Source: Myxococcus landrumus (GTDB lineage: Bacteria; Myxococcota; Myxococcia; Myxococcales; Myxococcaceae). Taken from it: a stretch of 64,000 nt of DNA. Positions within the stretch are counted from its first letter, which is position 1, and each line of letters begins with the position of its first letter. The translations under genes were made by a program, and so were the position numbers. Location: assembly GCF_017301635.1 (NCBI RefSeq), contig NZ_CP071091.1:4352001-4416000 (forward strand), given 5' to 3'. Below, piece by piece: positions 17,840-50,203 of the stretch. The notes under the pieces were generated by a model. That model was given only the letters and a program-made list of their open reading frames with translations. It was not told where the DNA came from and did not search any database.

Positions 17840-18650
17840 ATGGTGAGTCGCACGCGGATGGAACACGAGCTGTTGGGGGCGCTTCGCGACCTCGCCAAGA
17901 CCGCGCTTCCCCTGGGACGTTTGCTCACGGAGCTCAACGTGCTGCTCCGCGAGCCCATGGGCTACGACGCAAGCTGCTGGCACGGCACGGCCCCCGCCAC
18001 GGGGTTCGTGACCTCGACGGTGGCGGAGAACCTGGACCCGCGCGGCTTCGAGCGCGCGGCGGACCTCGAGATGTGGACCCCCGAGCCCCTGACCTTCACC
18101 CGGCTGCGTGTGTCCGGACGCAAGGCGGCGACGCTCGTCCAGGCCGCGGGAGGCCGCCCCGAGGACAGCACCCGCTTCCGCGAGCTGCTGGAGCCCGTGG
18201 GCTTTGGCGATGAGCTCCGCATCAACTTCGACCTCCCCTCCGGATGCTGGGGCTCGGCGGTGTTCATGCGCTCATCGGACCGAGGCCCCTTCACCTCGCG
18301 CGAAGTGGGCCTGGCCGAGCGGCTCGCCCCCCACATCAGCCAGCTCCCTCCTGTGTCGCGCCTACCCGAGCGACCTGTCCGGAGGCGAAGCGCCGCTCCT
18401 TCCGGGCGTCGCCGTGCTGGTGCGCACCCACCGGGGCAGGTGGCTGACGCTGCATGCCACGCTGCTGGAGGGCTCTCCCTCGGGGCAGGTCGCCATCGTC
18501 GCCGCGCCCGCCACGCCGTCGGAGCTTCTCCCCGTGGCCTTGATGAGCATGGGGCTCAGCATTCGCGAGCAGGACGTCGCGGTGCTCGTCCTCCGGGGAC
18601 ATGACACCGCCACCATCTCCCGCGCGCTGAAGCGGCGACGCAGGGCCGCA
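17840..18650 (+). pseudogene. LuxR-type regulator, frameshifted and truncated
   Basis: The frame from ATG 17840 encodes an N-terminal sensor-like region (YDASCWHGTAPATGF, FRELLEPVGFGDELR, LAERLAPHISQ) typical of LuxR-family regulators with a GAF-like domain. After HISQ it turns into arginine-rich nonsense. Continuation in another frame restores sense: YPSDLSGGEAPLLPGVAVLV, then the LuxR helix-turn-helix start LSIREQDVAVLVLRGHDTAT. Removing one C from the CCC run at 18346-18348 joins the two frames. The helix-turn-helix then ends at ISRALK, before the recognition helix, where the 3' end of the deiminase gene begins. Two lesions (frameshift and C-terminal loss) make this a pseudogene. A sequencing error could explain only the first. 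Confidence 0.7.
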
Positions 18651-18657
18651 CGCCCGC

Positions 18658-19602
18658 TCAGGACGCGCGCCGCAAGGGCATCGTCAGACAGCGCACGCTC
18701 CCGTTACCGCCTTCGAGCGCTTCGATATCCACGCCCACCACCTCCATCCTCAACCCTCGCACCAGCGCACGCAGGTGCGGCGCCGCCCCTTCCGAGGCGA
18801 GGAGCAGCCGAGGCTCCAGGTGGATGAAGTTGGACAGGAAGGGGTGCGTGTTCCCCGGCTCGAACGTCAGGACCCGCCGCCCTCGCTGCACGAAGTAGTC
18901 CTCGAAGGACTCCCACCTCGCGGGCCGCTCCCGCACGCAGACCTGGAGTGGACAGTGTCGAAGGAAGGCCCGCGCCAACACCGCCTCCTCGCCCAGCACA
19001 TTGAAGGCGAGGTCCAGGTGGATGATGCCCAGGTCCCCGGGGATGCGGACGACCGCCACCTCTTCGAAGCCCGCCTCCCAGGCCAGCTCCACGAAGTCGC
19101 GCGCGCACCGCGCATCACTGCGCAAGCCCACGTTGACCAGCAGCCGCCGCTGCCCGAGCAGGAACACGTCCCCGAACTCCACGCGGGCCACCGACGCCCA
19201 CGCCACATCCCCGTCGGGGCGCCCCATCAACCGCGACAGCGCGCCATGCGTGACGTCGAACTCGGCCACCCGTGTGGGGAATCCCGCGGCCCCGCGCACC
19301 AACCGCGCACCCAGCGCCACGGCCGTGTCACGAACAAAAACCCTGTTCACCGTGGTGTTGCTGACGACCCGGTCCGCGGGTGACAAGAAATCCACCAGGT
19401 CAATGGCACGACAGCCAAAGGAACCAAGGACCTCCCGCAGCCGGTTTGAAGCGTCCTGCGCTTCAATTCTTGTCACGATTCGAGAAAAACCGACGGCAAC
19501 GGCCTCTTCCGCCGATGCGACGTCCAACGCTGCGGGCTGGAACACCACCACGCTGTCCAGCCGGCCGTCCTCCGACCAGCACTCGACTTGGTCAAACGCC
19601 AT
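18658..19602 (-). CDS. Arginine deiminase/amidinotransferase-superfamily enzyme
   Basis: A 314-residue cytoplasmic enzyme of the guanidino-modifying superfamily, which attacks a guanidinium group with a Cys nucleophile. All expected catalytic elements are visible: RD (91-92, in RVFVRDTAVALG), E142 and D145 (EFGD), His195 and Asp197 (IIHLDLAFN), and Cys305 near the C-terminus (GNGSVRCLTMPL). The closing motif is the one seen in arginine deiminases. It is shorter than classical arginine deiminase (about 410) and longer than DDAH (about 255-285). It is divergent from the PKS-NRPS operon across a 94-base AT-rich spacer, so co-regulation is likely. It could make citrulline from arginine for the peptide, or deiminate an Arg residue in the product. 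Ornithine release via citrulline is less direct. The exact substrate is not shown. Confidence 0.85.
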   Translation of the reverse strand: MAFDQVECWSEDGRLDSVVVFQPAALDVASAEEAVAVGFSRIVTRIEAQDASNRLREVLGSFGCRAIDLVDFLSPADRVVSNTTVNRVFVRDTAVALGARLVRGAAGFPTRVAEFDVTHGALSRLMGRPDGDVAWASVARVEFGDVFLLGQRRLLVNVGLRSDARCARDFVELAWEAGFEEVAVVRIPGDLGIIHLDLAFNVLGEEAVLARAFLRHCPLQVCVRERPARWESFEDYFVQRGRRVLTFEPGNTHPFLSNFIHLEPRLLLASEGAAPHLRALVRGLRMEVVGVDIEALEGGNGSVRCLTMPLRRAS

Positions 19603-19696
19603 CGAATCGCACCTGCCACGCGGTCGCTACCTGGACCTCTATTTACTGACTGTTGTATTAAATCATCGTTGTAACTCTAATCAACCTAATCCAGTT
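19603..19696. promoter_or_regulatory. AT-rich divergent promoter region of the lipopeptide locus
   Basis: The 94 bases between the deiminase start and the synthetase start include an AT-rich core (19640-19698) that contrasts sharply with the surrounding GC-rich DNA. For the operon direction, TTGTAT (19653-19658) and TCTAAT (19676-19681) are 17 bases apart. For the deiminase direction, the complement holds TTGATT followed 16-18 bases later by TTTAAT/TTAATA/TAATAC. These resemble sigma-70 boxes, so both genes probably fire from here. No operator repeat is obvious. Confidence 0.5.
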
Positions 19697-28092
<8,396 letters not shown>

Positions 28093-28096
<4 letters not shown>

Positions 28097-31000
28097 GCGC
28101 CACCACCCCACGCCCCATCGACGCGTTGATGCAGCACCTGCGCGGCCTCGACATCCGGCTGTGGCTGGAGGGAGAGCGGCTGCGCTTCAGCGCGCCCCCC
28201 GGAGCGCTCACGCCGGAGCTCCAGGCCGAGCTGAAGGAGCGCAAGGCAGAGCTCATCACCTTCCTGCAAGGCGCCGCACAGGCCACGCGCGGCGCCACGG
28301 AGACCATTCCGCCCCGCCCCCGCGACGAGGCGTCTCCGCTGTCCTCGAGCCAGCAGCGGCTGTGGTTCCTGGAGCAGCTCGAGGGGCCCTCGGGTGCCTA
28401 TACGATGCCCGCGGCGCTGCGCCTCACGGGGGCGCTGGATGTGCACGCGCTGGAGCGCGCGCTGACCGCCATCGTCCGGCGCCATGAGGTGCTCCGGACA
28501 CGCTACGCCATGGACGGAGGACGTCCCTTCCAGCACCTCCTGCCCGATGCCACCGTGACGCTGGAGCGGGTGGACCTGGAGCCGCTCCCCACCGAGACGC
28601 GCCTCCCGGAGGTCCATCGCCGCGCCTCCGAGGAAGCTCGGGCGCCGTTCGACTTGTCGCGCGACCTTCCGCTGCGCGCGCGCCTGCTCCGGTTGGAGGC
28701 ACGCGAGCATGTGCTGCTGCTCACGCTGCACCACATCGCGAGCGACGGCTGGTCCCTCGGCGTGCTGATGCGGGAGCTGGCCGCGCACTACCAGGCGCTC
28801 ACCGCGGGAGGAGAGGCCGCGCTCCCCGCACTGCCCATCCAGTACGCGGACTATGCGCATTGGCAGCGGCGCCGCTCGGAGGACGGGGCACTGAAGGCTC
28901 ACGTCGAGTGGTGGCGCGAGCGCCTCTCCGGCGCACCGGCGTTGCTCGAGCTCCCCACGGACCGTCCCCGCCCCGCGTCCCAGCGCTTCCTCGGGGCCAC
29001 GCGGCGCTTCACCGTTCCGTCGGCCCTCACCGGCCAGCTCAAGCAGCGCGCCCGCGACGCGGAGGCCACGCTGTTCATGACGCTGCTGACCGCGTTCGGC
29101 GTGCTGCTCTCCCGCTACAGCGGCCAGCGAGACGTCGTGGTCGGGACGCCCATCGCCAACCGGCCCGCTTCGACGGAAGCCCTCATCGGCCTCTTCGCCA
29201 ACACGCTCCCGCTGCGCGTGTCCCTGGAGGGTGACCCGACCTTCTCGGCCCTGCTCCGCGAGGTGCGCCGCGACACGCTCACCGCGTACTCGCATCAGGA
29301 GGTCCCGCTCGAACAGCTCGTCGAAGCGCTCCAGCCCGCACGCGACCTGAGCCACCCGCCGCTGTTCCAGGTCCTGCTCACCCTCCAGAACACGCCACCC
29401 GCGCCCCTGGCGCTTCCGGGGCTCGCGCTGGAGCTGCTCGTCGTGGAGAGCGGGACGTCGCAGTTCGACCTGTCGCTGTCCCTGACGGAGACGAACGAGG
29501 GCCTGTCGGCCGAGCTCAACTACAACACCGACCTGTTCGACGACGCGACCGCCGCGCGCATGGTGGACCACTTCCACTGCCTGCTGGAGCAAGTGGCCGA
29601 GGCCCCCGAGCGCGCCGTCTCGCGCCTCCCGCTGCTGCGTGAGCCGGAGCGCGCGACCCTGTTGCACGCGTGGAACGACACCGGCCTCGCGCTCCCGGCC
29701 CCGTGCACCGTGCACTGCCTCGTCGAGGCCCAGGCCACACGCCGTCCGGACGCCATCGCCGTTCGCTTCGGCCCCCAGGCACTGACATACGCGGAGCTGG
29801 ACACGCGGGCCAACCGCGTGGCGAACCACCTGCGGCACCTGGGAGTCGGACCCGGCCAGCGCGTGGGCATCTTCCTGGAACGTGGGCTCGACCTGATGGC
29901 CGGACTGCTCGGCATCCTCAAGTCGGGGGCTGCCTACGTCCCGCTCGACCCGATGTATCCGGCGCTTCGGTTGATGCACATCCTCGAGGACAGCGGCGTC
30001 GCGGCGCTGGTCACCGAGCCGGACCTGGCCGCGCTCATCCCTGGTTGGCAAGGGGTCCAGGTTCGTCCCTCCGACACCGCGGGGGCCGCCTCCGACGCGG
30101 TGATCATGGACACCCAAGGCACGGACCTGGCCTACGTGCTCTACACCTCCGGCTCGACGGGGCGGCCCAAGGGCGTGGCCGTTCCGCATGAGGCCGCGGT
30201 GAACTTCCTCACCTCGATGCGGCGCGAGCCCGGGATGACCGAGCGGGACACGCTGCTCGCGGTGACGACGGTCGCCTTCGACATCTCCGTGCTGGAGCTG
30301 TTCCTCCCGCTGAGCGTGGGCGGGTGCGTGTTCATCGCCAGCCAGGAGGAGGCCATGGACGGCACGCGCCTGTTGCCGCTCATGACGGCGAGCGGCGCCA
30401 CGATGATGCAGGCCACGCCTTCCACCTGGCGGATGCTGCTGTCGCTGGGCGGGGCCAGCCCACCGGCGATGAAGCTGCTGTGCGGCGGCGAGGCACTGCC
30501 TCCCGAGCTGCTGGCTCCCTTGCGAGCACGTTGCTCGGAGCTGTGGAACATGTACGGCCCCACGGAGACCACCGTGTGGTCCACGGTGTCCCGCCTCGAG
30601 AGCGGAGCCCCCATCACGCTCGGCCGGCCCATCGCCAACACCCAGGCGCACGTGCTGGATGCGTGGCTCCAACCCGTCCCCCCGGGAGTGGTGGGCACGC
30701 TGTTCCTCGGCGGACTGGGCGTGGCTCGCGGCTACCTGAATCGCCCGGACCTCACCGCCGAGCAGTTCGTTCCAGACCCGCACTCCCATCGCCCTGGCGC
30801 GCGCCTCTACCGCACCGGAGACCTGGCGCGACGGAGGCCCGACGGCTCGCTGGAGTTCCTGGGACGCGGCGATGGACAGGTGAAGGTGCGAGGCCACCGC
30901 ATCGAGTTGGGAGACATCGAAGCCCGCCTCGCCCAGCATCCCGGCGTGGCGGAGACGGCGGTGCGTCCGTGGGGCCCCCCGAGCGACCCGATGCTGGTCG

Positions 31001-31545
31001 CGTACGTCCGGCCCGGTCCTGGCGTCACGCTCGACGAAGCGGCCCTGCGCGGGCATCTCCGCGCACAGCTCCCCTCGTACATGCTGCCCGCGTCCTTCGT
31101 GGTGCTGGAGTCCTTCCCCCGCACCGCCAACAACAAGCTGGACCGCAAGGCGCTTCCTCCTCCCGACCTGGGCGCACGCGCGGCCACCACGTTCGTCGCG
31201 CCGCGCACCCCTGACGAGCAGCGCCTCGCGGACATCTGGCGCGAAGTGCTGGGCGTGGAGCGCGTCGGAATGGAGGACGACTTCTTCGCCTTGGGTGGCC
31301 ATTCGATGAAGGCCGTCCAGGCGCTCGCGCGCATCCAGGAGGCCTGGCGCGTGGAGGTCACCCTGCGCGTCCTCTTCGAGCACCCGACCTTGGGAGCCAT
31401 GTCGAAGCACCTGGAGGCCGCGAAACCCGCGCCGTCGCGACCCGCGCCACCGCCCCTCATGGCTCGCCCCCGGCAGGCACGCCGCGTCCAAGCGGACTCG
31501 CGCGCCGACCTCAACCTGCCGGACTCCTCGACTCAATCCGATTAG
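28093..31545 (+). CDS. NRPS, docking-C-A-PCP, predicted glycine module
   Basis: A 1150-residue single-module synthetase starting at a GTG that overlaps the stop of the previous gene (GTGA). Residues 1-60 resemble the TubC N-terminal docking domain (IRLWLEGERLRFSAPPGALT), a helix/strand unit that pairs with the C-terminus of the upstream enzyme. The C domain (about 80-526) has HHIASDG. The A domain (about 533-1026) has YTSGSTGRPKG and the specificity string DILQLGMVW, very close to the glycine code DILQLGLIW. The PCP (about 1036-1109) carries FFALGGHSM. A short, basic, low-complexity tail ends the protein. It should add Gly as residue 2. A 48-base gap, the only one in the operon, separates it from the next gene. 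Confidence 0.92.
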
Positions 31546-31593: not shown

Positions 31594-34500
31594 ATGACCG
31601 CCGAATCCTTCGTCTTCCCCGTCTCGTTCGCGCAGCAGCGGCTGTGGTTCCTCCACCTCCTCCAGCCGGAGAACCCGAGCTACAACATCGCGGGAGCAGT
31701 GAGGCTCAGCGGGCACCTCGAGGTCGAAGCGCTCCAGCGCTCCTTCGACGCCCTCGTGGAGCGGCATGAATCGCTGCGCACCACGTTCGCCCAGGAGGAC
31801 GGCAACCCCGTCCAGGTCATCGCGCCGGAGGGCCGCGCGCCCATCACCCTCGTGGACCTGGGCGACAGTCCTGAGGCCGAGCGCGAGGAGGTCGCGCGGA
31901 GGCTGGCCACCGCGGAGTGCCGCCGGCCGTTCGACCTGATGCGCGGGCCGCTGCTGCGCCTGCGCCTCTTCCGGCTCGCGCCGACCGAACACCTCCTGGT
32001 GATGACGCTGCACCACATCATCTCGGACGGTGGCTCGCTGGGCATCCTCGTCCACGAGATGTCGCGGCTCTACGACGCGTTCCGCGCGGGCCGAGAGCCG
32101 GACCTGGAGCCCCTCCCGCTCCAGTACGCGGACTTCACCCAATGGCAGCGCGACTGGCTGGAGACACCCGGGACGCTGGACGCGCACCTCACCTACTGGA
32201 AGCAGAAGCTCGCGGGCGCCAGCGTGCTCCAGCTTCCCACCGACCGGCCTCGGCCCGCGCTCCAGTCGCAGAAGGGCGCGGCGCTGCCCATCCACCTGCC
32301 CCGCCCGCTCGTCGATGCGCTGCGCACGCTGGGCCAGGGCGAGCGCACCACCCTGTTCATGGCGGTGCTGGCCGCGTGGCAGGGACTGCTGTCGCGCTAC
32401 ACGCACCAGACGGACATCCTCGTGGGCGCGCCGCAGAACAACCGCGCGCACGTCCAGACGGAGGGGCTGATTGGCTTCTTCGTCAACACGCTGGTGCTGC
32501 GCACGGACCTGTCCGGCAACCCCACCTTCCGCGAGCTGCTGGCCCGTGTGCGTGAGGTGCTGCTGGAGGCCCACGCGCACCAGGACCTGCCCTTCGAGCG
32601 GCTGATGGACACGGTCCAGCCCGAGCGCAACCTCGCCTACACCCCGCTGTTCCAGGCGGCGCTCAACCTCCAGGCGGCCTCACCGCGTGAGCTGACGCTG
32701 CCGGGGCTCACGCTGAAGACCGTCGAGTTCGAGACGGGCACCTCCAAGTTCGACGTCACGCTGGACCTGCAAGAGGGCCAGGACGGGCTGCGCGGGGTGC
32801 TCGAGTACAACACCGACCTCTTCGACCGGGCGACGATGGAGCGGCTGCGTGGCCATCTGCTCTCGCTGCTCGAAGGCGTCACGCGTGCCCCGGACCTGCG
32901 GCTGGACGCCTGGCCCCTGCTGACCGCGCCCGAGCGTCATCAACTCCTGGAGACGTGGCCCGCGCTGACGCCCTTCTCGGGCACGGGCAGCCTGCATCAG
33001 CGCTTCGAGGCCCAGGCCCGGCGACAGCCCGACGCCATCGCGGTCATCAGCGAGGCGGAGCGCATCACCTACGCGGAGCTGGACCGCCGCGCGAACCAGC
33101 TCGCCCACGCGCTGCGCGCGCGCGGTGTCGAGCGCGAGACGCTGGTGGGCCTGTGCGTGGAGCGCTCCGCCGCCACCGTGGTGGGCATCCTCGGCATCCT
33201 CAAGGCGGGCGCGGCGTACGTGCCGCTCGACCCGACATACCCCGCGGACCGGCTGGCCTACATGGTGACGGACAGCCAGATGCCCGTCGCCATCACCCAG
33301 CGACACCTCTCGGACCGCTTGCCCACGGAGGGTGTCTCGCTGCTCGTCCTGGAGGACGCCGCCGAGGACCTCGCGCGCCAGCCCACCACCTCGCCCGGCG
33401 TGCCCGTCTCGGAAGACGGCCTCGCGTACGTCATCTACACGTCCGGCTCCACGGGGCGCCCCAAGGGTTCGCTGCTCCCGCATGGCAATGTCCTGCGGCT
33501 CTTCGACGCGACGGAGGCGTGGTTCCACTTCGACGCTCAGGACGTCTGGACGCTGTTCCACTCCTACGCGTTCGACTTCTCCGTCTGGGAGTTGTGGGGC
33601 GCGCTGCTGTACGGCGGCCGGCTGGTGGTGGTCCCCTACCTCACGTCGCGCTCACCCGATGCCTTCCTCCAGTTGCTGCACGATGAGCGCGTCACGGTGC
33701 TGAACCAGACGCCCGCGGCATTCCGCCAGCTCATCCAGGCGGAGGAGCGGCTGGAGTCGAAGTCCCTGCCGCTCGCCCTGCGCTCCGTCATCTTCGGCGG
33801 CGAGGCGCTGGAGCCGGCGACGCTGGTGCCCTGGTTCCAGCGGCACGGAGACGCCCGGCCCCAGCTCATCAACATGTACGGCATCACCGAGACGACCGTG
33901 CATGTCACCTACCGGCCGATGACGGCCGCGGAGGCCGCGCACACGCAGCAGAGTCCCATCGGCCTGGCCATCCCCGACCTCCAGCTCTACGTGCTGGACT
34001 CGCGGATGGAGCCCGTGCCCATCGGTGTCACGGGGGAGATTCACGTCGGCGGCGCGGGACTCGCGCGCGGCTACCTGGGACAGCCGGGCCTCACCGCCCA
34101 GCGCTTCGTGCCCCATCCGTTCAGCCGCGTCCCCGGGGCTCGGCTCTATCGCACCGGAGACCTGGCGCGCTTCACGCCAGATGGCCAGCTCGAATACCTG
34201 GGCCGCATCGACGACCAGGTGAAGATTCGCGGCTTCCGCATCGAGCTGGGAGAGATTCAGGTCGTCCTCAGCCTGCACCCCGCCGTGCGCGAGGCGCTCG
34301 TCCTGGTGCGCGAGGAGACGCCCGGAGCGCGCTCGCTCGTGGCCTATCTCGCCACTGGAGACCAGGCGCCCCCGAGCGTCGCGGACCTGCGTCAGTTCCT
34401 GCTCGCCCGCCTCCCGGACTACATGGTGCCGAGCGCCTTCGTCCTGATGGAGCGCTTCCCGCTCACCGCCAATGGCAAGGTGGACCGCAAGGCCCTGCCC

Positions 34501-37500
34501 GAGCCGTCGCGTGAGCGCGCGGAGGCGGCGCGGTACGTCGCGCCTCGCAGCGACGCGGAGGCCGCACTGTGCGCCATCTGGTCGGAGGTGCTCGGCGTTC
34601 CTCGCGTCGGCATCCAGGACAACTTCTTCGCGCTGGGCGGTGACTCCATCCTCAGCATCCGCGTGCTGACGCTCGCGCGGCGCAAGGGCCTGGACTTCAC
34701 CCTCCAGCAGCTCTTCCAGCATCAGACGGTGGCCGCGCTGATGGACACGGCCGGCGCCACTCGCGAGCAGCCCGTGCGAGAAGAGTTCCCTCGCACCGAG
34801 CCCTTCAGCCTCGTCACCGAGGAGGACCGCGCGAAGCTGCCTCCGGGCATCGAGGACGCCTACCCGCTCGCGCGAATCCAGGCCGGCATGCTGTACCACA
34901 TGCAGCTCGCGCCGGGCTCTAACGTCTACCACAACACGGACACGTTCCATCTGCGGCTGGCCACGCGCGTGGACACCGCGTTGTTCGACGAGGCCGTGCG
35001 CGTCATCGTCGCGCGGCACCCCGTGCTGCGCACGTCGTTCGACATGACGACGTACAGCGAGCCGCTCCAGCTCGTGCATCGCGAGGTGAAGCTCTCTCTC
35101 GAAGTCGTCGACCTGCGCCACCTGTCCGACGCGGAGCAGGAGGCCGCCATCCGGCAGCTCCTGGAGGACGAGCGGAACACGCCCTTCGACCTGGCCGTGC
35201 CGCCCCTGCTGCGCTTCTTCATCCACCTGCGCGGCGAGCAGTCCTTCCAGTTCACGCTCACCGAGTGCCACGCCATCATCGACGGCTGGAGCCTCCACTC
35301 CACCCTCGTGGAGATCTTCAACCACCACCATGCGCTGGTGAACGGGCAGACCCCACCTCCCGAGCTGCCCGCCACGATGACGTATCGCGACTTCGTGGCC
35401 ATGGAGCGCCGGGTCATCGAGTCGGAGCCGCACCAGCGCTTCTGGAGAGACCAGCTCGCGGGAGGCTCCGTCATGCGGATGCCTCGCTGGCGTCGCGCGT
35501 CCGCCTCCGAGACTCCTCGCATCGCCACCGTCAAGGTGCCACTGTCGCGTGAGCTCCACGACGGCCTGCTCGCGCTCACCCGCGCCGAGGGCGTCCCATT
35601 CAAGAGCATCCTCGTCGCCGCCCACCTCAAGGTGATGGGCTTGATGAGCGGCCAGGAGGACGTCATCACCGGCATGGGCGTCAACAGTCGCCCCGAGGAA
35701 GGCGATGGCTCCCGGCTGCGCGCCATCTTCCTCAACACCCTCCCCTTCCGCCTGCGCCTGGCCCCAGGGAGCTGGACGTCCCTGGTCCGTGCCGCCTTCG
35801 ACGCCGAGCGCGCGCTGTATCCGTTCCGCCGCTACCCCATGGCGGACATCCAGCGACAGTGGGGCCGCGAGCCTCTCTACGAAGTCATGTTCAACTACAT
35901 GCACTTCCACGTCCTGCATGAGCTGGCCGGCACGCTCTCGCAGGTCGAGGCGCTCAGCATGATTCGCGCCGAGGGCACCAACGCCACCCTCGCGGTCCAC
36001 TTCCAGACCGAGCCGCACACCCAGGAGCTGACGCTCGAGCTCGACTACAACGCCGTCGAGCTGGAGCACGTGCAGGTCGAGCAGGTCGGCGCCGCCTTCC
36101 AGCGCGTGCTGAGCGCGCTCGCCTTCCACGCGGACCAGCCACACCACACCACCAGCGCGCTGCCGTCCGAGGAGCAGCGGCGGTTGCTGATGGACTGGAA
36201 CGCCACCGTCGCGCCCTTCCCCACCGAGGCGACCTTCCGGGCCCTCTTCGAGGCGCGCGTCGCGGCCGCTCCCAACGCGGTCGCCGCGGTCGAGGGCACG
36301 AGGACGCTCACCTACGCGGAGCTGGATGCCCGGGCCCACCAGCTCGCGTGGCACCTGCGCTCGCTGGGGGTGGGGCCGGAGCGGCTGGTGGCGCTCCACC
36401 TGGACCGCTCGCTCGAGCTGCTCGTCGGCGTGCTGGGCGCCACGAAGGCGGGCGCGGCCTGGCTGCCGTTGGACCCGGCCTATCCCTCGGAGCGACTGGC
36501 CTTCATGTTGTCGGACTCGCGCGCGGAGGTGCTGCTCACCACGAGCCACTTCGCGCCGGCGCTCTCCGCCGCGGGCATCCGCACCGTCCTCCTGGACGGG
36601 CCTCCGGATGCGCACTCGGGCCTTCCGACGGGCGCTCCCCCTCCGACGCCGAATGGCGACGCGCTCGCGTACGTCATCTACACCTCCGGCTCCACGGGCC
36701 TGCCGAAGGGCACGCTGGTGACACAGCGAGGACTCGTCCACTACCTCGACTGGGCGCGGCACGAGTATCGGGTGTCACAGGGGCAGAGTGCTCCGGTCCA
36801 CACCTCCATCGCGTTCGACGCCACCCTCACCAGCCTCCTCACTCCGCTCTGCGCGGGTGGCACGGTCCACCTGCTGCCCTCGGGACAGGAGCTGGAGGCG
36901 CTGGCGGTGTCGCTGCGAGAGCACCGGCATGGGCTCGTCAAGCTCACCCCCGCGCACCTCCAGGTGCTGTCCAACCTCCTGCCCGAGCAGGCCCTGGCCT
37001 CGCTGGAGGGGACGTTCGTCGTGGGCGGTGAAGCACTCCCCGCCGCGACGGTGGAGCTGTGGCGACGGCAAGCGCCTCGCGTGCGGCTGGTCAACGAGTA
37101 CGGTCCCACGGAGACGGTGGTCGGCTGCTCCATCCATGACGTGAGCGCGACGGGGCTGGTGGATGGCATCGTCCCCATCGGCCGCCCCATCGCGAACACG
37201 GAGATGTACGTGTTGGATGCGCAGCTCCAGCCCGTGCCTGTCGGTGTCGTGGGAGAGCTGTACATCGGCGGCGTGGGCGTGGCGCGCGGCTACCTGGGCC
37301 GCGCGGGCCTCACCGCCGAGCGCTTCGTGCCCGACCCTTTCAGCGGACGCCCGGGCGCGCGGATGTACCGCCCTGGAGACCTCGCGCGCTTCCTGCCGGA
37401 CGGCACGATGGACTTCCTCGGCCGCCGCGACGGACAGGTGAAGCTGCGCGGTCATCGCATCGAGCTGGGCGAAATCGAGGCCACGCTGCGTCAGCACCCG

Positions 37501-40500
37501 TCCATCGGTGACGCGGTGGTCCTGGTGCGCGAGGACGTCCCGGGAGACCAGCGCCTCGCGGCCTACGTCGTGCCTCACACAGGGAAGGCGGCGGACGCGA
37601 GCGACCTGCGTTCGTTCCTCCAGCGGAGGCTTCCCGTCTACATGGTGCCCGCGTCCTTCTCGACGCTGGAGGCACTGCCCCTCACTCCCAACGGCAAGGT
37701 GGACCGCGCGGCCTTGGCGGTGCCGACGTCCGATGCGAACGGCACGGCCCTCGCTCCTCGCAATGGCACCGAGGAGCTGGTCGCCAGCATCTGGGCATCG
37801 GTGCTGCGCACGGAGCGCTTCGGGCTCCACGATGCCTTCTTCGACCTCGGCGGCCACTCGCTGCTCGCCACGCAGGTGGTGTCACGCGTGCGCGAGGCGT
37901 TCGGCGTGGAGTTGCCCATCGCCACGCTCTTCGAGGCCCCCACCGTGGCGGGCCTCTCCGAGCGCATCCAGGCCCTGCGCGCCAAGGCGATGGGCGAGCC
38001 ACCACCGCCGCCCTTGTTGACCCTTCCGCATGAAGGCCCCCAACCGCTGTCGTTCGCACAGCAGCGGCTGTGGTTCCTCTACCGCATGGAGCCGGAGAGC
38101 CCCGTCTACAACATGCCGGCGGTCCTCCGTCTCTCGGGGGCGCTGGACGTGGACGTGGCTCGCCGGTGCCTGGACGCGCTGCGCGAGCGCCACGAGAGCT
38201 TGCGCACGACGTTCCAGATGAACGGACAGACACCCGCGCAGGTCGTCGCTCCCGCGGCGGCCTCTCCGTTGGAGGTCATCGACCTGACGGGGCTTCCCGT
38301 CGAGCAACGTGAGGCCGAGGCCCGACGGTTGGTGGATGAGGAGGCCCGTCGCCCCTTCGCCCTGGAGCGTGGCCCTGGCTTCCGTTGCGCCCTGCTGCGC
38401 CTGGGTGAGCGCGAGCATCTGCTGTTGCTGACGCTGCACCACATCATCGCCGACGGTTGGTCTCTCTCCGTACTGGTGCGCGAGGTGGCAGCGCTCTATG
38501 CATCCTTCAGCGAGGGACGGCCCTCGCCCCTGACTGCGCTTCCGGTGCAGTACGCGGACTATGCGCGCTGGCAGCGGGAGTGGCTGTCCGGCGCCGCGCT
38601 GGAGCGACAGCTCTCGTACTGGAAGGAGCGGCTCACGGGGGCTCCGCCCTTCCTGGAGCTGCCCACGGACCATCCTCGCCCACCGGTGCAGGGCTTCCGA
38701 GGCACCACGCATCAAGGGCCCCTGCTGGCTCGCGAGGAAGCCGAGGCCCTGCGCGCGCTCTGCCGTCGCGAAGGCGCCACGCCCTTCATGGCCGTGATGG
38801 CGGCGTTCCAGGTCCTCCTCCACCGGTACACGGGGGAGACGGACCTCGTCGTCGGCACGGACATCGCCAACCGCAACCACCTGGGCACCGAGGGGCTGAT
38901 TGGCTTCTTCATCAACCAGCTCGTCATGCGCGGCGACCTCTCGGGGGACCCGACCTTCCGCGCACTCCTCCGGCAGACGCGGCGCACGGCGCTGGATGCG
39001 TACGCGCACCAGGACCTTCCCTTCGAGGAGCTGGTCAAGGCGGTCAACCCCGAGCGCAGCGTGGGCTACTCGCCTGTCTTCCAGGTGAAGCTCATCCTCC
39101 AGAACGCGCCGGGCTCCGACCTGGAGCTGCCGGGGCTCGTGTTGAAGGAAGAGGCCAGCACCACGAACACCGCCCGGTTCGACATGACCTGGGTGGTCAC
39201 CGAGACGGAGCACGGGCTCGAGTGCCTGTGCGAGTACAGCACCGACCTCTACGAGCAGGAGACCATCGCCCGGATGAGGGAGCACCTGGGCCAGGTGCTC
39301 GCGAGCGCCGTGGCACGGCCGGAGGCGCATGTCTCGCGCCTGGCGCTGCTGCCCGAGACGGAGCGCCACCGCCTGCTGGTGGAGTGGAATGACACGGCGG
39401 TGTCGCTGCCCGAGGAGGCGCTCGCGCATCGCCTCTTCGAGGCCCAGGTGGCACGCACGCCGGACGCGGTGGCCGTCAGCTTCGAGGGCCGGGAGCTCCG
39501 CTATCGCGAGCTGGACGCTCGCGCCAACCAGCTCGCCGGGCATCTGCGAGGACTGGGCGTGGGCCCCGAGGTCCGCGTGGGCCTGTGCCTGGAGCGCTCG
39601 CTGGAGCTGGTGGTGGGGCTCCTCGCCATCCTCAAGGCGGGTGGCGCGTGGCTGCCGCTGGACCCGACGCTTCCCATGGCTCGGCTCGGGATGATGATGC
39701 GCGACGCGGGGGTTCCCGTCGTCATCACCCAGGAGCACCTCGCGGACGAGCTGCCCATCCAGGCGGAGCTGCTCGTGTGCCTGGATTCGGAAGCGGACGC
39801 GAAGCACATCGCGCGTCAACCGGTGGCGTCGCCCTCCGTGGCGCTGTCACCGGACAACCTCGCCTACGTCATCTTCACCTCCGGCTCCACGGGCAAGCCC
39901 AAGGGCACGCTGCTGACGCATCGGGGCCTGTGCAACACGGCCCTGGCGGCCGTTCGCGCGCACCGCATCCAGCCGGACAGCCGCGTGCTCCAGTTCGCGG
40001 CCATCAGCTTCGACGCCTCGGTGTGCGAGCTGTTCTCCGCGCTGCTGGCGGGTGCTCGGCTGTGCCTCGCGCCTCGGGATGCCCTCATGCCGGGAGCGCC
40101 CTTGCAGGGGCTGCTGGTGTCGCAGGGAATCACCGTGGCCACGCTGACGCCTTCGGTGCTGGCGCGGTTGGATCCGGCGGGCTTGCCCTCGCTCGCGTCC
40201 GTCATCTCCGCGGGTGAGGCGTGCACGCCGGAGCTCGCGCGCCAGTGGGTGGAGGGCCGGCACTTCGTCAACGCGTATGGCCCCACGGAGGTGACGGTGT
40301 GCGCCTCCGCGCAGGAGCAGGTGGACGTGGAGCGGCCGGACATCGGCCGGGCGTGGCCCAACGTGCGGTTGTTCGTGCTGGATGCCGAGGGACGGCCCGT
40401 GCCCACGGGCGTTCCGGGAGAGCTGTTCATCGGCGGCGTGGGTGTGGCGCGTGGGTATCTCGGCCGGCCGGAGCTGACGGCGGAGCGCTTCGTCCCGGAT

Positions 40501-43500
40501 GCGTTCAGCGGCACTCCGGGCGCGCGGCTGTACCGCACGGGAGACCGGGTGCGGTGGCTCGCGAACGGACCTCTCGAGTTCCTGGGCCGCACCGACTTCC
40601 AGGTGAAGCTGCGCGGCTTCCGTATCGAACTGGGAGAAGTCGAAGCCGCGTTGGCGGAGCTGCCCGAGGTGCAAGAGGCGGCGGTCGCGGTGCGAGAGGA
40701 GGCACCGGGCCGGAAGCAGCTCGTGGCCTGGATTGTCCCCTCGGGAGAGGAGGCACCGGACACGGCGGCGCTGCGGCGTGCGCTGGAGGTTCGGCTCCCG
40801 GACTACATGGTGCCCTCGACGTTCATCGCGCTGAAGGCCCTGCCGCTGACGTCCAGCGGCAAGGTGGACCGCCGGGCCCTCGCGTCCGAGGCCCCTCAGC
40901 AACAGCGCGCCAAGGACACCTACGTCGCGCCGCGCACGGCCGTGGAGCGGACACTGACGGCCATCTGGTCGGCGGTGCTGTCTCGCGAGCGCGTGGGCAT
41001 CCACGACAACTTCTTCGAGCTGGGTGGCGACTCCATCGTCAGCATCCAGGTCATCGCGCGAGCGCAAGAGGCGGGGCTGCGCATCACGCCGAGGCAGTTC
41101 TTCCAGCACCAGACCATCGCGGCGCTGGCCCCGCACGTGAGCGAGGCCCAGGCTCCTCGAGGTGAGCAAGGGGTGGTGACGGGCCCGGTGCCCCTCACGC
41201 CGATTCAACGGTGGTTCTTCGAGTCGCGGCTCCCGCAGCCGCACCACTACAACCAATCCCTCCTGCTGGGGCTGCGCGAGCGCCCGAACCAGGAGGCGCT
41301 GCGCGATGCATTGACCGCGCTGGTGGCGCACCACGACGCGCTCCGTCTGCGCTTCGAGGAGACCCCGAACGGTTGGCGGCAGGAGAACACCGCGCTGGCA
41401 CACGCAACGGAGACGTGCGCCGCGACTTCGTGTGGCGCCCATGGCGTCGCTCCGACGCAGCCCACGACGGCGCCTGCTTCGGACGCGGCGAGGCAGGCGG
41501 CGGGCACAACCGCACAGCCCCCACCTGATGCAGCACGCACGTTGGAGTGCCAGACGCCAGGAACAGCCATCCCGGCCGCGCTTCCTCGCGTCGCATCCGC
41601 GCAGCCGATGGACCTGCGCGTGGTGGACCTGTCCGCCCTCGATGAGGCAGCGCAGCGAGCAGCCCTGGAGGCGGAAGCCCAGAAGGTGCAGGCAGGCTTC
41701 GACCTGACGCAGGCGCCGCTGCTGGCCGCCGTCCTCTTTGACCTGGGACCTCGCGGCACCCGCCTGCTTCTCGCCGTCCACCACCTCGTGGTGGATGCCG
41801 TCTCCTGGCGCGTGCTGCTCCAGGATTTGGGAACCGCGTACCAACAACTCCTGCGCGGCGAGCCCGCCGCCCTGCCCGCGAAGACCACCTCGTTCCAGGA
41901 GTGGGCGCGCCGCCTGGAGGCTCACGCCCAGGGGCCGGAGCTTGCCGAGGAAGTCGCCACGTGGCTGCGGCAGGGGCTGGACGTTCCTCCGCTTCCTCTC
42001 GACCTCCCAGGCGGAGACAACACGCTCGCATCGGCTCGCACGGTGAGCGTCGCGCTCGCGGCCGAGGAGACCCGTACTCTCCTCCACGAGCTGCCGAAGT
42101 CCTGGCGCGCACGCATCGACGAAGTGCTGCTCACCGCACTCGTGCGCGCCCTCACCGCGTGGACAGGTCAGCGACTGCATCGCGTGCAGTGGGAAGGACA
42201 CGGCCGCGAGGAACTCTTTGAGGACGTCGACCTCAGCCGCACCGTGGGCTGGTTCACCAGCATCTACCCCGTCACGGTGGAACTGCCCCCCACTGGCACA
42301 CCAGGCGATGGCCTGCGAGCGGTGCGAGATGCACTGCGACGGGTGCCTCGCAAGGGCCTCGGCTACGGGCTCCTGCGCTACCTGCGCCAGGACTCCGTGC
42401 GCACGAAGCTCTCGGCCATTCCCGAACCACAGGTCGCCTTCAACTACCTGGGACAGCTCGACAGCGCGCTCCCTTCCGACTCGCCGCTCGTCCCCGCGGA
42501 TGAGCCCATCGGCGCGCAGCAGAGCCTCCACGGACACCGCAGGCAGGTGTTGGAGGTGAACGCCCATGTGCTGGAAGGCCGGCTGGAAGTGTCCCTCACC
42601 TACAGCGAGGCACTGCACCATCGCTCGACGCTGGAAGCCCTGGCCCAGGGCTATCTCCACGCGCTGCGCGAGCTGATGATGGGACAGGACACGGAGGACG
42701 CGAAGCGCCTGTCGCCCTCCGACTTCCCGCTGGCGGATGTGTCGCAAGCCACGTTGGACACCCTCCTGCGTGACAACCCCAAGCTCGAGGACCTCTACCC
42801 GCTGTCCCCCATGCAGCAGGGCATGCTGTTCCACGCACGACTGGAGCCTCGCGCGGGCGTGTACTTCGAGCGGGCCGCGTGGACCCTGGACTCGGACCTG
42901 AACGTCGAGGCCCTGCGCCTCGCCTGGCGCGAGACGATGGAGCGCCACCCCATCCTCCGCACCCGCTTCGCGTGGGAGGGAATGGAGGAGCCGCACCAGC
43001 TCGTCCACCGGGAGGCCCCACTGCCGTGGGAAGAGGCCGACTGGAGAGCCCTGACCGAGCCCCAGCAGAAGGCGCGGCAGACCCGCTGGATGCAGGAGGA
43101 CGAAGCACGCGGCTTCGACCTCGAGCAAGCCCCCTTGATGCGAGTGGCCGTGCTGCGCCTCGGCGAGCGGACGTGGCGCGTGGTGTGGAGCTTCCATCAC
43201 CTGCTGCTCGACGGCTGGAGCGTGGGCCGAGTGCTCAACGAGGTGCTGGCCAGGTACGACGCGAAGCTGCGCCGCGAGCCCTCCACCTTCGAGGCACCGC
43301 CCCTGTTCCGCGACTACATCGCCTGGCTGCGCGAGCGCGGCACGGCGAAGGCGGAGACGTGGTGGCGACAAGAGCTGGCCGGCTTCACCGAGCCGACGCC
43401 CGTCCCCTGTGAGCAAGGAGGCCAGGCACGAAGCGCGACCCCGGTGATGGGGGCACGCAAGGTCATCCTCCCCGAGGACGCGACGGAGCGCCTCCGCGTC

Positions 43501-46041: not shown

Positions 46042-49000
46042 CGCACTCCAGAAGCGGCTGGCCGGACTGTCTCCGGAGAAGCGGGAGCTGGTGCTGAAGA
46101 AGCTGCGCCAGCAGCAGAAGACCGCCGCACCCGAAACAGTGTCGACGCCTCCGTCGATTCCCAAGGTCCCGCGCACGGGGCCGCTGCCGCTCTCGTATCC
46201 GCAGCGCCGGCTGTGGTTCCTGGACCAGTTCGAGCCCGGGACACCGGCCTACAACATCCCCGAGTTCGTGCGACTGCGCGGCCCGCTCCAGGTGGAAGCA
46301 CTGACGCGGGCCATCCTCGAGGTCGTCCACCGGCACGAGGTGCTCCGGACGACCTTCGGCTCGGAGAATGGCGAGCCCGTCCAGCACATCGCGCCGCGCC
46401 TCTCGCTCGATGTGCCCGTGATGGACCTGACGTCCTTGCCCATCGGAGAGCGTGAGGCTCGCTGCCAGGAGCTGGCGCTTCGAGAGGCCGGAAGGTCCTT
46501 CGACCTGGCGAAGGGCCCCCTCCTGGCGGCGACCCTGGTGCGGCTGGGTGCGGAGGACCATGTCCTGCTGCTGGTGCTCCACCACATCATCTCCGATGGC
46601 TGGTCCACGGGTGTGCTCGTCCGCGAGCTGGCGGCCCTCTATGACGCCTTCTCTCACGGACAACCGTCGCCGCTGCCGGAGCTGTCCATCCAATACGGCG
46701 ACTTCGCTGTGTGGCAGCGACGCTGGCTCCAGGGCGACGTGCTGGAGGCACAGCTCGGCTACTGGCGCGGGCAGCTCGCGGATGGCGACGCGCCCCTGAA
46801 GCTGCCCACGGACCGGGCACGTCCCCGCGTGCGCACGTACGCCGGCGGCAAGCAGAACTTCGCCGTGTCCCCGGAGCTCACGCGTCGCCTGAGGGCACTC
46901 GCGGGACAGGAGAAGGCCTCGCTGTACATGGTGCTGCTGGCGGCGTTCCAGGCGCAGCTTCACCGCTACACGCGAGAGCCTCGCCTCAGCGTGGGCACGT
47001 ACATCGCCAACCGCAACCGCGCCGCCATCGAGCCGCTCATCGGGTTCTTCCTCAACACGCTCGTCATGCGCACGGACATGACCGGCAACCCGCCCTTCCG
47101 AGACTTCTTGCGGCGCGTGGTGGACGTGACGCTGGGGGCGTATGCCCACCAGGACGTCCCCTTCGAGAAGCTGCTGGAGGAGCTGGCGCCCACGCGCGAC
47201 ACCAGCTTCCCGCCGTTCTTCCAGGCGATGCTGGTGCTCCAGAACACGCCCGACGCCGAGGCCGCCATCGGGGCCCTCCGGATGGAGCCCTACACCGTCG
47301 CGGGCGAGTCCTTCGCCCAGTTCGACGTCACGCTGTGGCTCGCCGAGGAGGCCGACGGGCTGCAAGGCACCTGGGAGTACAACCGGGACCTCTTTGACGC
47401 CACCACCGCCGACCGGATGGTGGCGCACTTCCAGACGCTGCTGGCGGGCATCGCGGCGCGTCCCGATGAGCCACTGTCCACGGTGCCTCTGCTCCCGACG
47501 GAGGAGCGCGAGCGCGTCCTGCGCGAGTGGAACGCGGCCCGCCTCGAGGTTCCAGAGGGCGCCTGCCTCCATCACCTCATCGCGGCCCATGCCACCCGGA
47601 CGCCGGATGCGCTCGCGGTCGTCGACCCGGAGCGCCGCCTCACCTACGGGCAGCTCGACCGGCGCGCCAACCAGCTCGCGCATCAGCTTCGCGCCATGGG
47701 GGTGGGAACGGAGCACCGGGTGGGCATCTTCCTGGAGCGCTCCGTCGACCTGGTGGTGGCCGTGCTCGCCGTGCTCAAGGCCGGGGGAACCTACGTTCCG
47801 CTGGACCCGTCCTATCCACCGGACCGCACCGCGCTGATGCTCTCCGACAGCAGGCCCGCGCTGCTCATCACCCGGCGCTCACTGCGCACGACGTTGCCCG
47901 AACCCCTGCCCACGGTGGTGAGCCTGGGCGATGACGCGCTCGCCATCGCGGGGCAGCCGGACACATGTCCCCCAGGCGGAGCGGGGCCCAAGCACCTGGC
48001 GTACGTGGTCTACACGTCGGGCTCCACGGGACGACCCAAGGGCGTGATGGTGGGCCACCGGGGGCTCGCCAACGCCTACTTCGCGTGGGAGCACGACTAC
48101 CGCCTTCCCACCCTGCGCGCCCATCTGCAGATGGCGAGCTTCTCGTTCGACGTGTTCAGCGGAGACCTCGCGCGGGCGCTCGGCTCGGGGGCCGCGCTGG
48201 TGCTCTGCCCGCGAGAGTGGCTGCTGGAGCCCGCGAGCCTCCATGCGTTGATGAAGCGGGAACAGGTGGACTGCGGAGAGTTCGTGCCCGCGGTGGCCCG
48301 GCTGCTGATGGCCCACCTCCAGGAGCGTGGGGAGCGGCTGGATTTCATGCGGCTGCTCATCGTCGGCTCGGACACCTGGGACATGCGCGAGTACCACCAG
48401 CTCCGAGGACTGTGCGGTCCGGACACGCGACTGGTGAGCTCGTACGGCCTCAGCGAGGCGACCATCGACAGCACCTACTTCGAGTCGCCCGCGCCAATCC
48501 CCAGCGAGCAGACGGTCCCCATCGGCCGTCCGTTCCCGAACGCGGAGATGTACCTGCTGGACGCGGCGCTTCAGCCCGCCCCCATCGGTGTGCCGGGGGA
48601 GCTGTTCGTCGGTGGCGTGGGGCTGGCGCGGGGCTACTGGGAGCAGCCGGGGCTCACGGCCGAGCGCTTCGTCCCGCATCCCTTCAGCACGGAGCCGGGC
48701 GCGCGCCTGTACCGGACGGGAGACCTGGCGCGGTATGCGGCGGATGGAACGCTGGAGTTCATCGGGCGCAACGACACGCAGGTGAAGCTGCGGGGTCACC
48801 GCATCGAGCTGGACGAAATCCGGGCGAAGTTGCTGGAGCACGCGGACGTGCGCGCCGTGGAGCTGCTCGTCCGGGGAGACGGTGCGGCGCGGCAGCTCGT
48901 CGCGTATCTCACGCTGGTGACACCCGGCGCGGTGGGCGAGGAGGCGCTTCGGCAGCACCTGCGTCAGCACCTGCCGCCGTACATGGTGCCCGCGGCCTTC

Positions 49001-50203
49001 GTCCTGATGGACGCCTTCCCGCTCACGCCCAACGGCAAGGTGGACCGGAACGCCCTGCCCCCGCCCGGCGAGTCCCGGCGCGACACCTCGGAGAGCTTCA
49101 TCGCGCCGCGCGGCGAGACGGAGCAAAAGCTGGCGGCCCTCTTCGAGGAGCTGTTGGGGACGGGGCCCATCGGCGCGTTCGACAGCTTCTTCGACCTCGG
49201 CGGACACTCCCTGCTCGCGGTCCGGTTGGTGGCCAAGATTCGCGAACACTTCGGCAAGGCCCCCTCGCTGGCGGCCCTCTTCCAGGGTCCGACGCCGGAG
49301 CACCTCGCGCGAGTGCTCGACGATGGCGGCGAGAGCCCGTGGTCACCGCTGGTGACGCTCCAGGCCGCGGGCGAGGGACCGCCGTTGTTCTGCGTGCCGG
49401 GAGCGGGAGGCAACGTCCTCTACTTCCGGGAGCTGACGCGGCAACTGGGCGCGGCACGCCCTCTCCACGGGTTTCAGGCGAAGGGCCTGGACGGAGAAGA
49501 AGCACCCCATGCCTCCGTCGAGGAGATGGCGGAGTGCTACGTCCAGGCGCTCCAGCGAGTGCGGCCTCATGGTCCCTATCACCTGCTGGGCCACTCGTTC
49601 GGAAGCTGGGTCGTCTTCGAGATGGCGCAGCGGCTCCGCGCGAAGGGTGAGGAGGTCGCCTTCCTCGGCCTCCTCAACACACCGGTGCCGAGGAACCCGG
49701 AAGCTCCCGCCGAGGAACCCTCGCTCGATGACGCGGACTGGATGGCCTCCGTCGCCAGCGTCGCGGGCCGGCTGTACGGCGTGGACCTGGGAGTCTCCGC
49801 CGAGACGCTCCGGCCGCTCACACCCGAAGCAAGGCTCGTTCACGTGACAGAGCGGCTCACCCAGAAGGGCCTCCTTCCTCCCGATGCGGACACGCGGCAG
49901 GTGCGCGGACTCATCCAGGTCTACAAGCGCGCCTACGAAATCACCTACGTCCTCCCGACGGAGGCCCACGCCGTCCCCATCACCCTCTTCCGAGCCCAGG
50001 AGCGACACGAGGACGACGGCGTCCTTCCAGGTGAGTTCGCGGAGGACAACACCTGGGGTTGGCGGCGCCACGCCGAAGGGGCCGTCACCGTCGAGGACGT
50101 CCCTGGCGACCACATGACGATGCTGGCCTCGCCCCACGTCGAGGTGCTCGCGGAGCGGATGCGCGGCCACCTGGAGCCCGCGGCCAAGAAGGTGGACGCA
50201 TGA
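46034..50203 (+). CDS. NRPS termination module C-A-PCP-TE
   Basis: A 1389-residue final synthetase. The start ATG 46034 overlaps the previous gene by 8 bases. A short helical N-terminus (LSPEKRELVLKKLRQQ) looks like an acceptor docking helix. Domains: C (53-500, HHIISDG), A (509-1009, code DVGELVSID, ornithine-like; the pocket closely parallels the last module of the preceding enzyme), PCP (1022-1090, FFDLGGHSL), TE (1106-1386, Ser1188 in GHSFGS, His in GDHMTML). It should add residue 7 and release the chain. With a beta-amino group available at the start, macrolactamisation as in iturins is the natural outcome, but hydrolysis cannot be excluded. The stop overlaps the exporter start. Confidence 0.93.
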   Translation: MSDALQKRLAGLSPEKRELVLKKLRQQQKTAAPETVSTPPSIPKVPRTGPLPLSYPQRRLWFLDQFEPGTPAYNIPEFVRLRGPLQVEALTRAILEVVHRHEVLRTTFGSENGEPVQHIAPRLSLDVPVMDLTSLPIGEREARCQELALREAGRSFDLAKGPLLAATLVRLGAEDHVLLLVLHHIISDGWSTGVLVRELAALYDAFSHGQPSPLPELSIQYGDFAVWQRRWLQGDVLEAQLGYWRGQLADGDAPLKLPTDRARPRVRTYAGGKQNFAVSPELTRRLRALAGQEKASLYMVLLAAFQAQLHRYTREPRLSVGTYIANRNRAAIEPLIGFFLNTLVMRTDMTGNPPFRDFLRRVVDVTLGAYAHQDVPFEKLLEELAPTRDTSFPPFFQAMLVLQNTPDAEAAIGALRMEPYTVAGESFAQFDVTLWLAEEADGLQGTWEYNRDLFDATTADRMVAHFQTLLAGIAARPDEPLSTVPLLPTEERERVLREWNAARLEVPEGACLHHLIAAHATRTPDALAVVDPERRLTYGQLDRRANQLAHQLRAMGVGTEHRVGIFLERSVDLVVAVLAVLKAGGTYVPLDPSYPPDRTALMLSDSRPALLITRRSLRTTLPEPLPTVVSLGDDALAIAGQPDTCPPGGAGPKHLAYVVYTSGSTGRPKGVMVGHRGLANAYFAWEHDYRLPTLRAHLQMASFSFDVFSGDLARALGSGAALVLCPREWLLEPASLHALMKREQVDCGEFVPAVARLLMAHLQERGERLDFMRLLIVGSDTWDMREYHQLRGLCGPDTRLVSSYGLSEATIDSTYFESPAPIPSEQTVPIGRPFPNAEMYLLDAALQPAPIGVPGELFVGGVGLARGYWEQPGLTAERFVPHPFSTEPGARLYRTGDLARYAADGTLEFIGRNDTQVKLRGHRIELDEIRAKLLEHADVRAVELLVRGDGAARQLVAYLTLVTPGAVGEEALRQHLRQHLPPYMVPAAFVLMDAFPLTPNGKVDRNALPPPGESRRDTSESFIAPRGETEQKLAALFEELLGTGPIGAFDSFFDLGGHSLLAVRLVAKIREHFGKAPSLAALFQGPTPEHLARVLDDGGESPWSPLVTLQAAGEGPPLFCVPGAGGNVLYFRELTRQLGAARPLHGFQAKGLDGEEAPHASVEEMAECYVQALQRVRPHGPYHLLGHSFGSWVVFEMAQRLRAKGEEVAFLGLLNTPVPRNPEAPAEEPSLDDADWMASVASVAGRLYGVDLGVSAETLRPLTPEARLVHVTERLTQKGLLPPDADTRQVRGLIQVYKRAYEITYVLPTEAHAVPITLFRAQERHEDDGVLPGEFAEDNTWGWRRHAEGAVTVEDVPGDHMTMLASPHVEVLAERMRGHLEPAAKKVDA

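What the first reader, a model, noticed from the sequence alone, without database searches (positions are those of the whole stretch)
18658..19602. Arginine-deiminase-like enzyme divergently paired with the lipopeptide operon
All deiminase catalytic residues are present (RD91-92, E142, D145, H195, D197, C305). The gene shares an AT-rich promoter spacer with the synthetase operon, whose last two A domains have ornithine-like pockets. It may supply citrulline, or deiminate an arginine residue of the product. I do not recall such an enzyme in an iturin-type locus.
Basis: partly seen in the sequence, partly recalled or inferred. Interest (0 to 1): 0.7.

Follow-up and report, generated by a model that had tools for sequence, protein, structure and literature searches.

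The report
Citrulline-making enzyme for a lipopeptide
A small arginine-modifying enzyme sits beside one uncharacterised lipopeptide assembly line in every genome searched here that has either of them, and it probably makes citrulline, the likely identity of the one building block of that peptide that could not be predicted.

Summary
The gene is real: 18658-19602(-), 314 aa, under purifying selection. Sequence and predicted fold are nearest to free L-arginine deiminases, with the catalytic residues and three residues that align with those holding free arginine's carboxylate, but without the deiminase helical domain. It lies divergent to a seven-module PKS-aminotransferase-NRPS operon in all 21 of 195 phylum genomes that carry it, and no other of the 195 has that operon's aminotransferase above 60% identity. 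Outer flanks change between clades while enzyme and operon stay together. [quoted passage not shown] A pocket fragment of module 1 (X) is nearest, among solved structures, to domains recalled as activating arginine and capreomycidine; two of three control fragments behaved as expected. Best reading: the enzyme turns free arginine into citrulline, which module 1 loads. Activity, structure and product are untested. A near-identical pocket in a relative without the enzyme leaves room for arginine as X.

The parts
18658..19602 (-). compact arginine-deiminase-like enzyme, 314 aa
   Evidence: PF02274 E 4.8e-11; nearest PDB sequences and folds are arginine deiminases
19603..19696 (.). divergent intergenic spacer, GC 0.45
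   Evidence: end set by an assumed TTG start of the first synthetase gene
19697..28096 (+). PKS-NRPS subunit 1: ACP-KS-AT-ACP-aminotransferase-C-A-PCP (module 1, pocket DAENIGAIT, residue X)
   Evidence: Pfam, pocket; start codon not settled
28093..31545 (+). NRPS subunit 2: TubC_N-C-A-PCP, module 2, Gly-type pocket
31594..46041 (+). NRPS subunit 3: modules 3-6 (Thr, Asn, Phe, Orn-type pockets), with a probable epimerase after module 5 (inferred from motif and spacing)
45848..50203 (+). NRPS subunit 4: C-A-PCP-TE, module 7, Orn-type pocket; true start probably inside the ORF as it overlaps subunit 3
50059..51558 (+). MFS transporter, probable exporter; true start probably inside the ORF
   Evidence: PF07690 E 9.2e-27; matched in 17 of 17 other operons, one match partial
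51555..53309 (+). stand-alone fatty-acyl-AMP-ligase-like enzyme
   Evidence: PF00501 E 9.5e-71 plus DIP2-like domain; matched in 17 of 17 other operons

Best explanation
The enzyme is a compact, single-domain deiminase that hydrolyses free L-arginine to L-citrulline plus ammonia through a cysteine adduct. It belongs to the neighbouring lipopeptide cluster and feeds module 1, whose adenylation domain loads citrulline as residue X next to the beta-amino fatty acid. [quoted passage not shown] Shown here: the gene, its catalytic set, its selection, its exclusive linkage, the pockets. Inferred: activity on free arginine (about 0.8), citrulline as X (about 0.6).
For: All 9 PDB sequence matches of the single sequence, and the 9 best of 20 of the profile, are arginine deiminases. 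VIA-align Z is 21.5-23.1 for the eight arginine deiminase entries, against 19.0 for nnhA, 17.9 or less for amidinotransferases and DDAH, 16.9 or less for ArgZ/AgrE and 13.8 or less for agmatine and peptidylarginine deiminases. Catalytic residues, plus N86, R111 and R161 aligned to the Asn/Arg/Arg of the Mycoplasma enzyme (carboxylate-holding role recalled), are invariant in 18 of 18. Linkage: the 21 of 195 phylum genomes with the enzyme are the same 21 that have the operon's aminotransferase at 73% identity or more; the next best is 60%. Outer flanks change between clades while enzyme and operon stay together. In 18 genomes pairwise identities of enzyme and NRPS subunit 2 correlate at r 0.963, and 10 of the 11 well-supported splits of the enzyme tree recur, 11 of 15 splits in all. 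The module 1 pocket fragment finds ApnA A1 and CmnG first (recalled as activating arginine/tyrosine and capreomycidine); control fragments of modules 5 and 2 find domains recalled as Phe- and Gly-activating first. The M1 pocket is identical in 21 of 21. The host genome has two PF02274 matches, neither in a frame of full arginine-deiminase size.
Against: No biochemistry and no product. An A domain with pocket DVENIGAIT, one residue from module 1, occurs in G127, which has no PF02274 match, so this pocket may load arginine, or citrulline from primary metabolism. The host has two OTCase/ATCase-family genes, so some citrulline should exist anyway. Two published lipopeptides contain citrulline that their authors attribute to arginine biosynthesis (PMC8552735, PMC13036774, passages read). 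The module 7 control fragment found no ornithine domain, and with the whole module 1 A domain ApnA A1 ranks below linear gramicidin synthetase and 8xjz, so the pocket method is not infallible. The structure model is of middling confidence (pLDDT 70.1, active-site stretches 84-92 and 301-306 below 50).
Confidence: 0.6

Rival explanations
1. Module 1 loads arginine, and the enzyme deiminates that arginine later, on the carrier protein or in the released lipopeptide.
For: The module 1 pocket fragment is arginine-like, and a near-identical pocket exists where no PF02274 gene was found.
Against: N86, R111 and R161, aligned to residues recalled to hold a free carboxylate, are invariant in 18 of 18. 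Peptidylarginine deiminases are among the most distant listed matches (Z 13.6).
Confidence: 0.15
2. The enzyme supplies ornithine for modules 6 and 7, either as an arginine dihydrolase (ArgZ type) or through citrulline and OTCase.
For: Two ornithine-type pockets; ArgZ/AgrE share the fold (Z 16.3-16.9).
Against: The aspartate of the HxD motif (D197) is retained as in deiminases, and position 95, three after D92, is V or A in 18 of 18, where dihydrolases are recalled to have a catalytic Asn (papers not held). Ornithine is an ordinary arginine-pathway intermediate.
Confidence: 0.1
3. It is an amidinotransferase that moves the amidino group of arginine to an amine of the product (ornithine side chain or beta-amino group).
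For: Same fold family; AGAT and SxtG at Z 17.9; amine acceptors are expected in the product.
Against: Lower fold scores than the deiminases, and no amidinotransferase among the PDB sequence matches; E142 matches the deiminase Glu, where amidinotransferases are recalled to have Asp.
Confidence: 0.07
4. A neighbour of general arginine metabolism that happens to sit beside the operon.
For: None found beyond adjacency being the starting observation.
Against: All 21 carriers have the operon beside the enzyme and the other 174 phylum genomes gave no enzyme match at 1e-6, with outer flanks that change.
Confidence: 0.04

Closest known systems
Arginine deiminase ArcA (EC 3.5.3.6; e.g. PDB 1rxx, 1lxy, 4e4j)
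   Same: Fold, catalytic Cys/His/Glu/Asp/Asp set, aligned carboxylate-holding Asn/Arg/Arg (role recalled)
   Different: 314 rather than about 410 residues: query 84/86 aligns to chain 89/154 of 1lxy, so the helical domain is absent; 14-18% identity in the structural alignments; tied to an NRPS cluster
[quoted passage not shown]
   Same: Predicted residues 2-7 identical in order; X unassigned in both
   Different: Passages read do not mention the deiminase; 'arginine' and 'citrulline' do not occur in its main text as held. Its accession was not fetched, so identity of the clusters is inferred
Mycosubtilin/iturin synthetases (recalled)
   Same: Order ACP-KS-AT-ACP-aminotransferase-C-A-PCP, seven modules, beta-amino fatty acid, TE
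   Different: Fatty-acid ligase is a separate gene; other residues; no deiminase recalled there
Citrulline-containing lipopeptides (rotihibin PMC8552735; paenidepsin PMC13036774; passages read)
   Same: Citrulline loaded by a module whose pocket the predictors miscall
   Different: Rotihibin's authors report no specific citrulline gene; both papers propose arginine biosynthesis as the source

Membership tests
Arginine deiminase (ArcA) | Catalytic Asp, Glu, His, Asp, Cys | tested here: met
   D92, E142, H195, D197, C305 align and are invariant in 18 of 18
Arginine deiminase (ArcA) | Asn/Arg/Arg that hold the carboxylate of free arginine (role recalled) | tested here: met
   N86, R111, R161 align, invariant
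Arginine deiminase (ArcA) | Helical insertion domain, total about 410 aa | tested here: not met
   Query 84/86 aligns to chain 89/154 of 1lxy
Arginine deiminase (ArcA) | NCBIfam arcA equivalog cut-off 489.1 bits | tested here: not met
   34.1 bits
Arginine deiminase (ArcA) | Citrulline and ammonia from free L-arginine | not testable with these tools
   needs an assay
Dimethylargininase (DDAH) | NCBIfam equivalog cut-offs 340 and 300 bits | tested here: not met
   23.8 and 15.8 bits
Amidinotransferase | Asp in place of the deiminase Glu (recalled) | tested here: inconclusive
   E142 aligned only against deiminases; fold Z 17.9 or less
Arginine dihydrolase (ArgZ/AgrE) | Catalytic Asn three after the first Asp (recalled) | tested here: inconclusive
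   V or A at position 95 in 18 of 18; no residue alignment to ArgZ was made
Iturin/mycosubtilin-type synthetase | ACP-KS-AT-ACP-aminotransferase-C-A-PCP order (recalled) | tested here: met
   Pfam domains of subunit 1, with three carrier domains
Iturin/mycosubtilin-type synthetase | Fatty-acid ligase fused at the N-terminus of the first subunit (recalled) | tested here: not met
   separate gene at 51555-53309

The most novel reading that the evidence does not exclude
The deiminase works on arginine already loaded on module 1, so that the assembly line swaps a charged guanidine for a neutral urea during synthesis: an on-line tailoring deiminase, a role I know of in no NRPS.
Probability: 0.1. 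Interest if true: 0.75.

Novelty: new variant of a known kind. Interest (0 to 1): 0.5.

Why it matters
It gives a concrete, testable identity (citrulline) to the one unpredicted residue of an orphan lipopeptide found in 16 of 27 genomes of the window's genus. It would also be a dedicated citrulline source inside an NRPS cluster; for two published citrulline lipopeptides the authors fall back on general arginine biosynthesis. If citrulline is confirmed, the pocket DAENIGAIT with its linked enzyme becomes a marker for citrulline modules, which predictors miscall. The compact deiminase without the helical domain is a further form of this enzyme family.

Tried and rejected
Rejected: chance neighbour (exact co-occurrence). 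Rejected as main reading: post-assembly deimination, ornithine supply, amidino transfer (see rivals).

Led nowhere: printed pocket codes like that of module 1 (0 papers; no occurrence in the main text of two papers; 3 papers, of which only PMC3992020 is relevant, for the ornithine code, passage read). Literature on deiminase plus NRPS gave 3 and 2 papers, seen as listings only; by title none looked like this case, but I read none of them. One search (residue roles) gave no paper. Searches gave listings, of which I read passages of PMC8552735, PMC13036774, PMC8616955, PMC12283262, PMC13126170 and PMC9581180 only. So the carboxylate-holding roles, the ArgZ Asn, the amidinotransferase Asp and the substrates of the PDB adenylation domains are recalled, not read. 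Plasmid records: no match. In one search a nineteenth genome, G089, has only a weak match (2.9e-5) to another deiminase-family protein (ORF seen); I left it out of the orthologue count. My first extraction of orthologues picked wrong ORFs in several rows and was discarded. In some searches only the best first-look candidates of each genome were scored (11 and 8 in the rows shown), so a diverged copy could have been missed.

Full report
What is there. The ORF at 18658-19602(-) encodes 314 residues with codon-position composition typical of the long genes of this window. Pfam places it in ADI, PF02274 (E 4.8e-11); NCBIfam models for arginine deiminase and dimethylargininase match far below their cut-offs. 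In the PDB its nearest sequences are arginine deiminases, by single sequence (9 of 9 matches) and by a profile of 18 sequences (the 9 best of 20 matches). The alignment also places N86, R111 and R161 on the Mycoplasma enzyme's Asn/Arg/Arg that (as I recall) hold the carboxylate of free arginine; these are invariant too. The same alignment jumps from query 84/86 to chain 89/154, so the helical domain is missing.

Fold. The AlphaFold2 model has mean pLDDT 70.1 and pTM 0.75, with stretches 84-92 and 301-306, both holding catalytic residues, below 50. Foldseek ranks arginine deiminases first (ranks 1-26). VIA-align, one row per entry, gives Z 21.5-23.1 for the eight arginine deiminase entries (rmsd 3.3-3.5, 297-305 residues), then nnhA 19.0, AGAT, SxtG and DDAH 17.9, ArgZ/AgrE 16.3-16.9, agmatine deiminase 13.8 and peptidylarginine deiminase 13.6. 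The differences are of degree, and a shared fold shows no function.

Linkage. In the window's own genome the enzyme has one strong match, itself, and three at E 0.02 or worse. Of 100 relatives, 18 carry an orthologue (own included; G089 left out as a weak match to another protein), all 57% identical or more; within the genus 16 of 27 genomes carry it and 11 do not. A profile search of the 195 held genomes of the phylum found 21 carriers at 1e-6. A search of the same 195 with the aminotransferase part of the first synthetase gene found 51 genomes with a match at 1e-60 or better; the 21 with a match at 73% identity or more are the same 21, and the next best match is at 60%; the other 30 genomes lack the enzyme. 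In the 17 other carriers whose neighbourhood I fetched first, the enzyme lies beside the operon on the opposite strand; the coordinates of the last three, G142, G145 and G149, show the same layout. Of 16 sampled loci around lower-identity aminotransferases, from 14 genomes (one of them, G149, a carrier elsewhere), none holds an enzyme match at E 1 or a DAENIGAIT pocket; one showed no A domain at all.

Boundaries. On the enzyme's outer side I fetched about 14-15 kb in 8 of the 17 other genomes: window genes further out were found in one (G008) and not in the other 7. The shorter flanks of G014 and G009, the nearest relatives, share at least the regulator gene. On the far side, all 17 other operons end with the MFS and fatty-acid ligase genes (the MFS match is partial in L071), while the next window genes were found in 3 of the 17 fetched stretches. 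The enzyme therefore travels with the cluster. Over 18 genomes its tree shares 11 of 15 splits with that of NRPS subunit 2 and 12 of 15 with that of the ligase (10 of 11 well-supported ones in each case); pairwise identities with subunit 2 correlate at r 0.963, and dN/dS against G014, G009 and G008 is 0.107, 0.137 and 0.136.

The assembly line. Subunit 1 is ACP-KS-AT-ACP-aminotransferase-C-A-PCP, subunit 2 is C-A-PCP, subunit 3 has four A domains and six condensation-type stretches, one more than four C domains and one epimerase would need, which may be a split match, and subunit 4 is C-A-PCP-TE. Pockets, read against a recalled gramicidin synthetase fragment: DAENIGAIT, DILQLGMVW, DFWNIGMVH, DATKVGEVG, DACTIAAVC, DVGEVGSID, DVGEIGSID. 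[quoted passage not shown] DVGEIGSIDK for ornithine is printed in PMC3992020. The module 1 pocket is identical in 21 of 21 operons, and the other pockets vary little in the 18 operons read in full. A 2022 review, PMC9581180, reports an unknown cluster in M. xanthus and M. [quoted passage not shown] I did not fetch its accession, so identity of the clusters is inferred.

What X may be. A 139-aa pocket fragment of module 1 searched against the PDB finds ApnA A1 first (E 1.5e-17) and CmnG second (1.7e-14), then tyrocidine synthase 1 and others, 7 sequences in all at 1e-10. From memory the first two activate arginine (and tyrosine) and capreomycidine, a cyclic arginine derivative. As controls, the module 5 fragment finds gramicidin and tyrocidine phenylalanine domains first, and the module 2 fragment finds 4zxh and 5u89 first, recalled as glycine-activating. 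The module 7 fragment finds beta-amino-acid ligases weakly and no ornithine domain, so two of three controls behaved; modules 3, 4 and 6 were not tried. With a longer 350-aa piece of the A domain the order differs: linear gramicidin synthetase and 8xjz come above ApnA A1. Module 1 and the enzyme thus both point to an arginine-type residue. The simplest joint reading is that the enzyme makes citrulline and module 1 loads it.

Against. In 59 genomes of the family the module 1 A domain has 9 genomes with a match at 1e-90; eight are carriers, and the ninth, G127, holds an A domain at 47% identity with pocket DVENIGAIT in another cluster and has no PF02274 match. That pocket may therefore mean arginine, or citrulline drawn from primary metabolism. 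The host has OTCase/ATCase-family genes (two matches) and arginase-family genes (two matches), so citrulline and ornithine can arise otherwise. Rotihibin's authors found no specific citrulline gene, and the paenidepsin authors also point to arginine biosynthesis.

Verdict. The listings, which cover open-licence papers only, showed no title on this pairing, and the passages I read do not mention it; most of those papers I did not open.

Noticed in passing
window 17840-18660: A LuxR-type regulator gene beside the enzyme is broken here (frameshift and internal losses that include most of the DNA-binding part), while G014, G009 and G008 keep a long intact frame. The cluster's control may have changed in this strain.
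   Followed up: partly
L051:1171-2163: A second PF02274 protein of 330 aa elsewhere in the host genome, below the cut-offs of the NCBIfam deiminase and dimethylargininase models; no such second match in G014 or G009.
   Followed up: partly
L110 and L111-L112 (G127): A fetched 40-kb stretch with five A domains, first pocket DVENIGAIT, then DAFFLGGTF, DALHLGCTF, DAFFLGVTY and DAFFLGVTF; product unknown and no PF02274 match in the genome.
   Followed up: partly
L079-L094: Other loci with a related aminotransferase at 60% identity or less beside A domains in Myxococcota, several with a glycine-type pocket: a broad set of possibly uncharacterised clusters.
   Followed up: no
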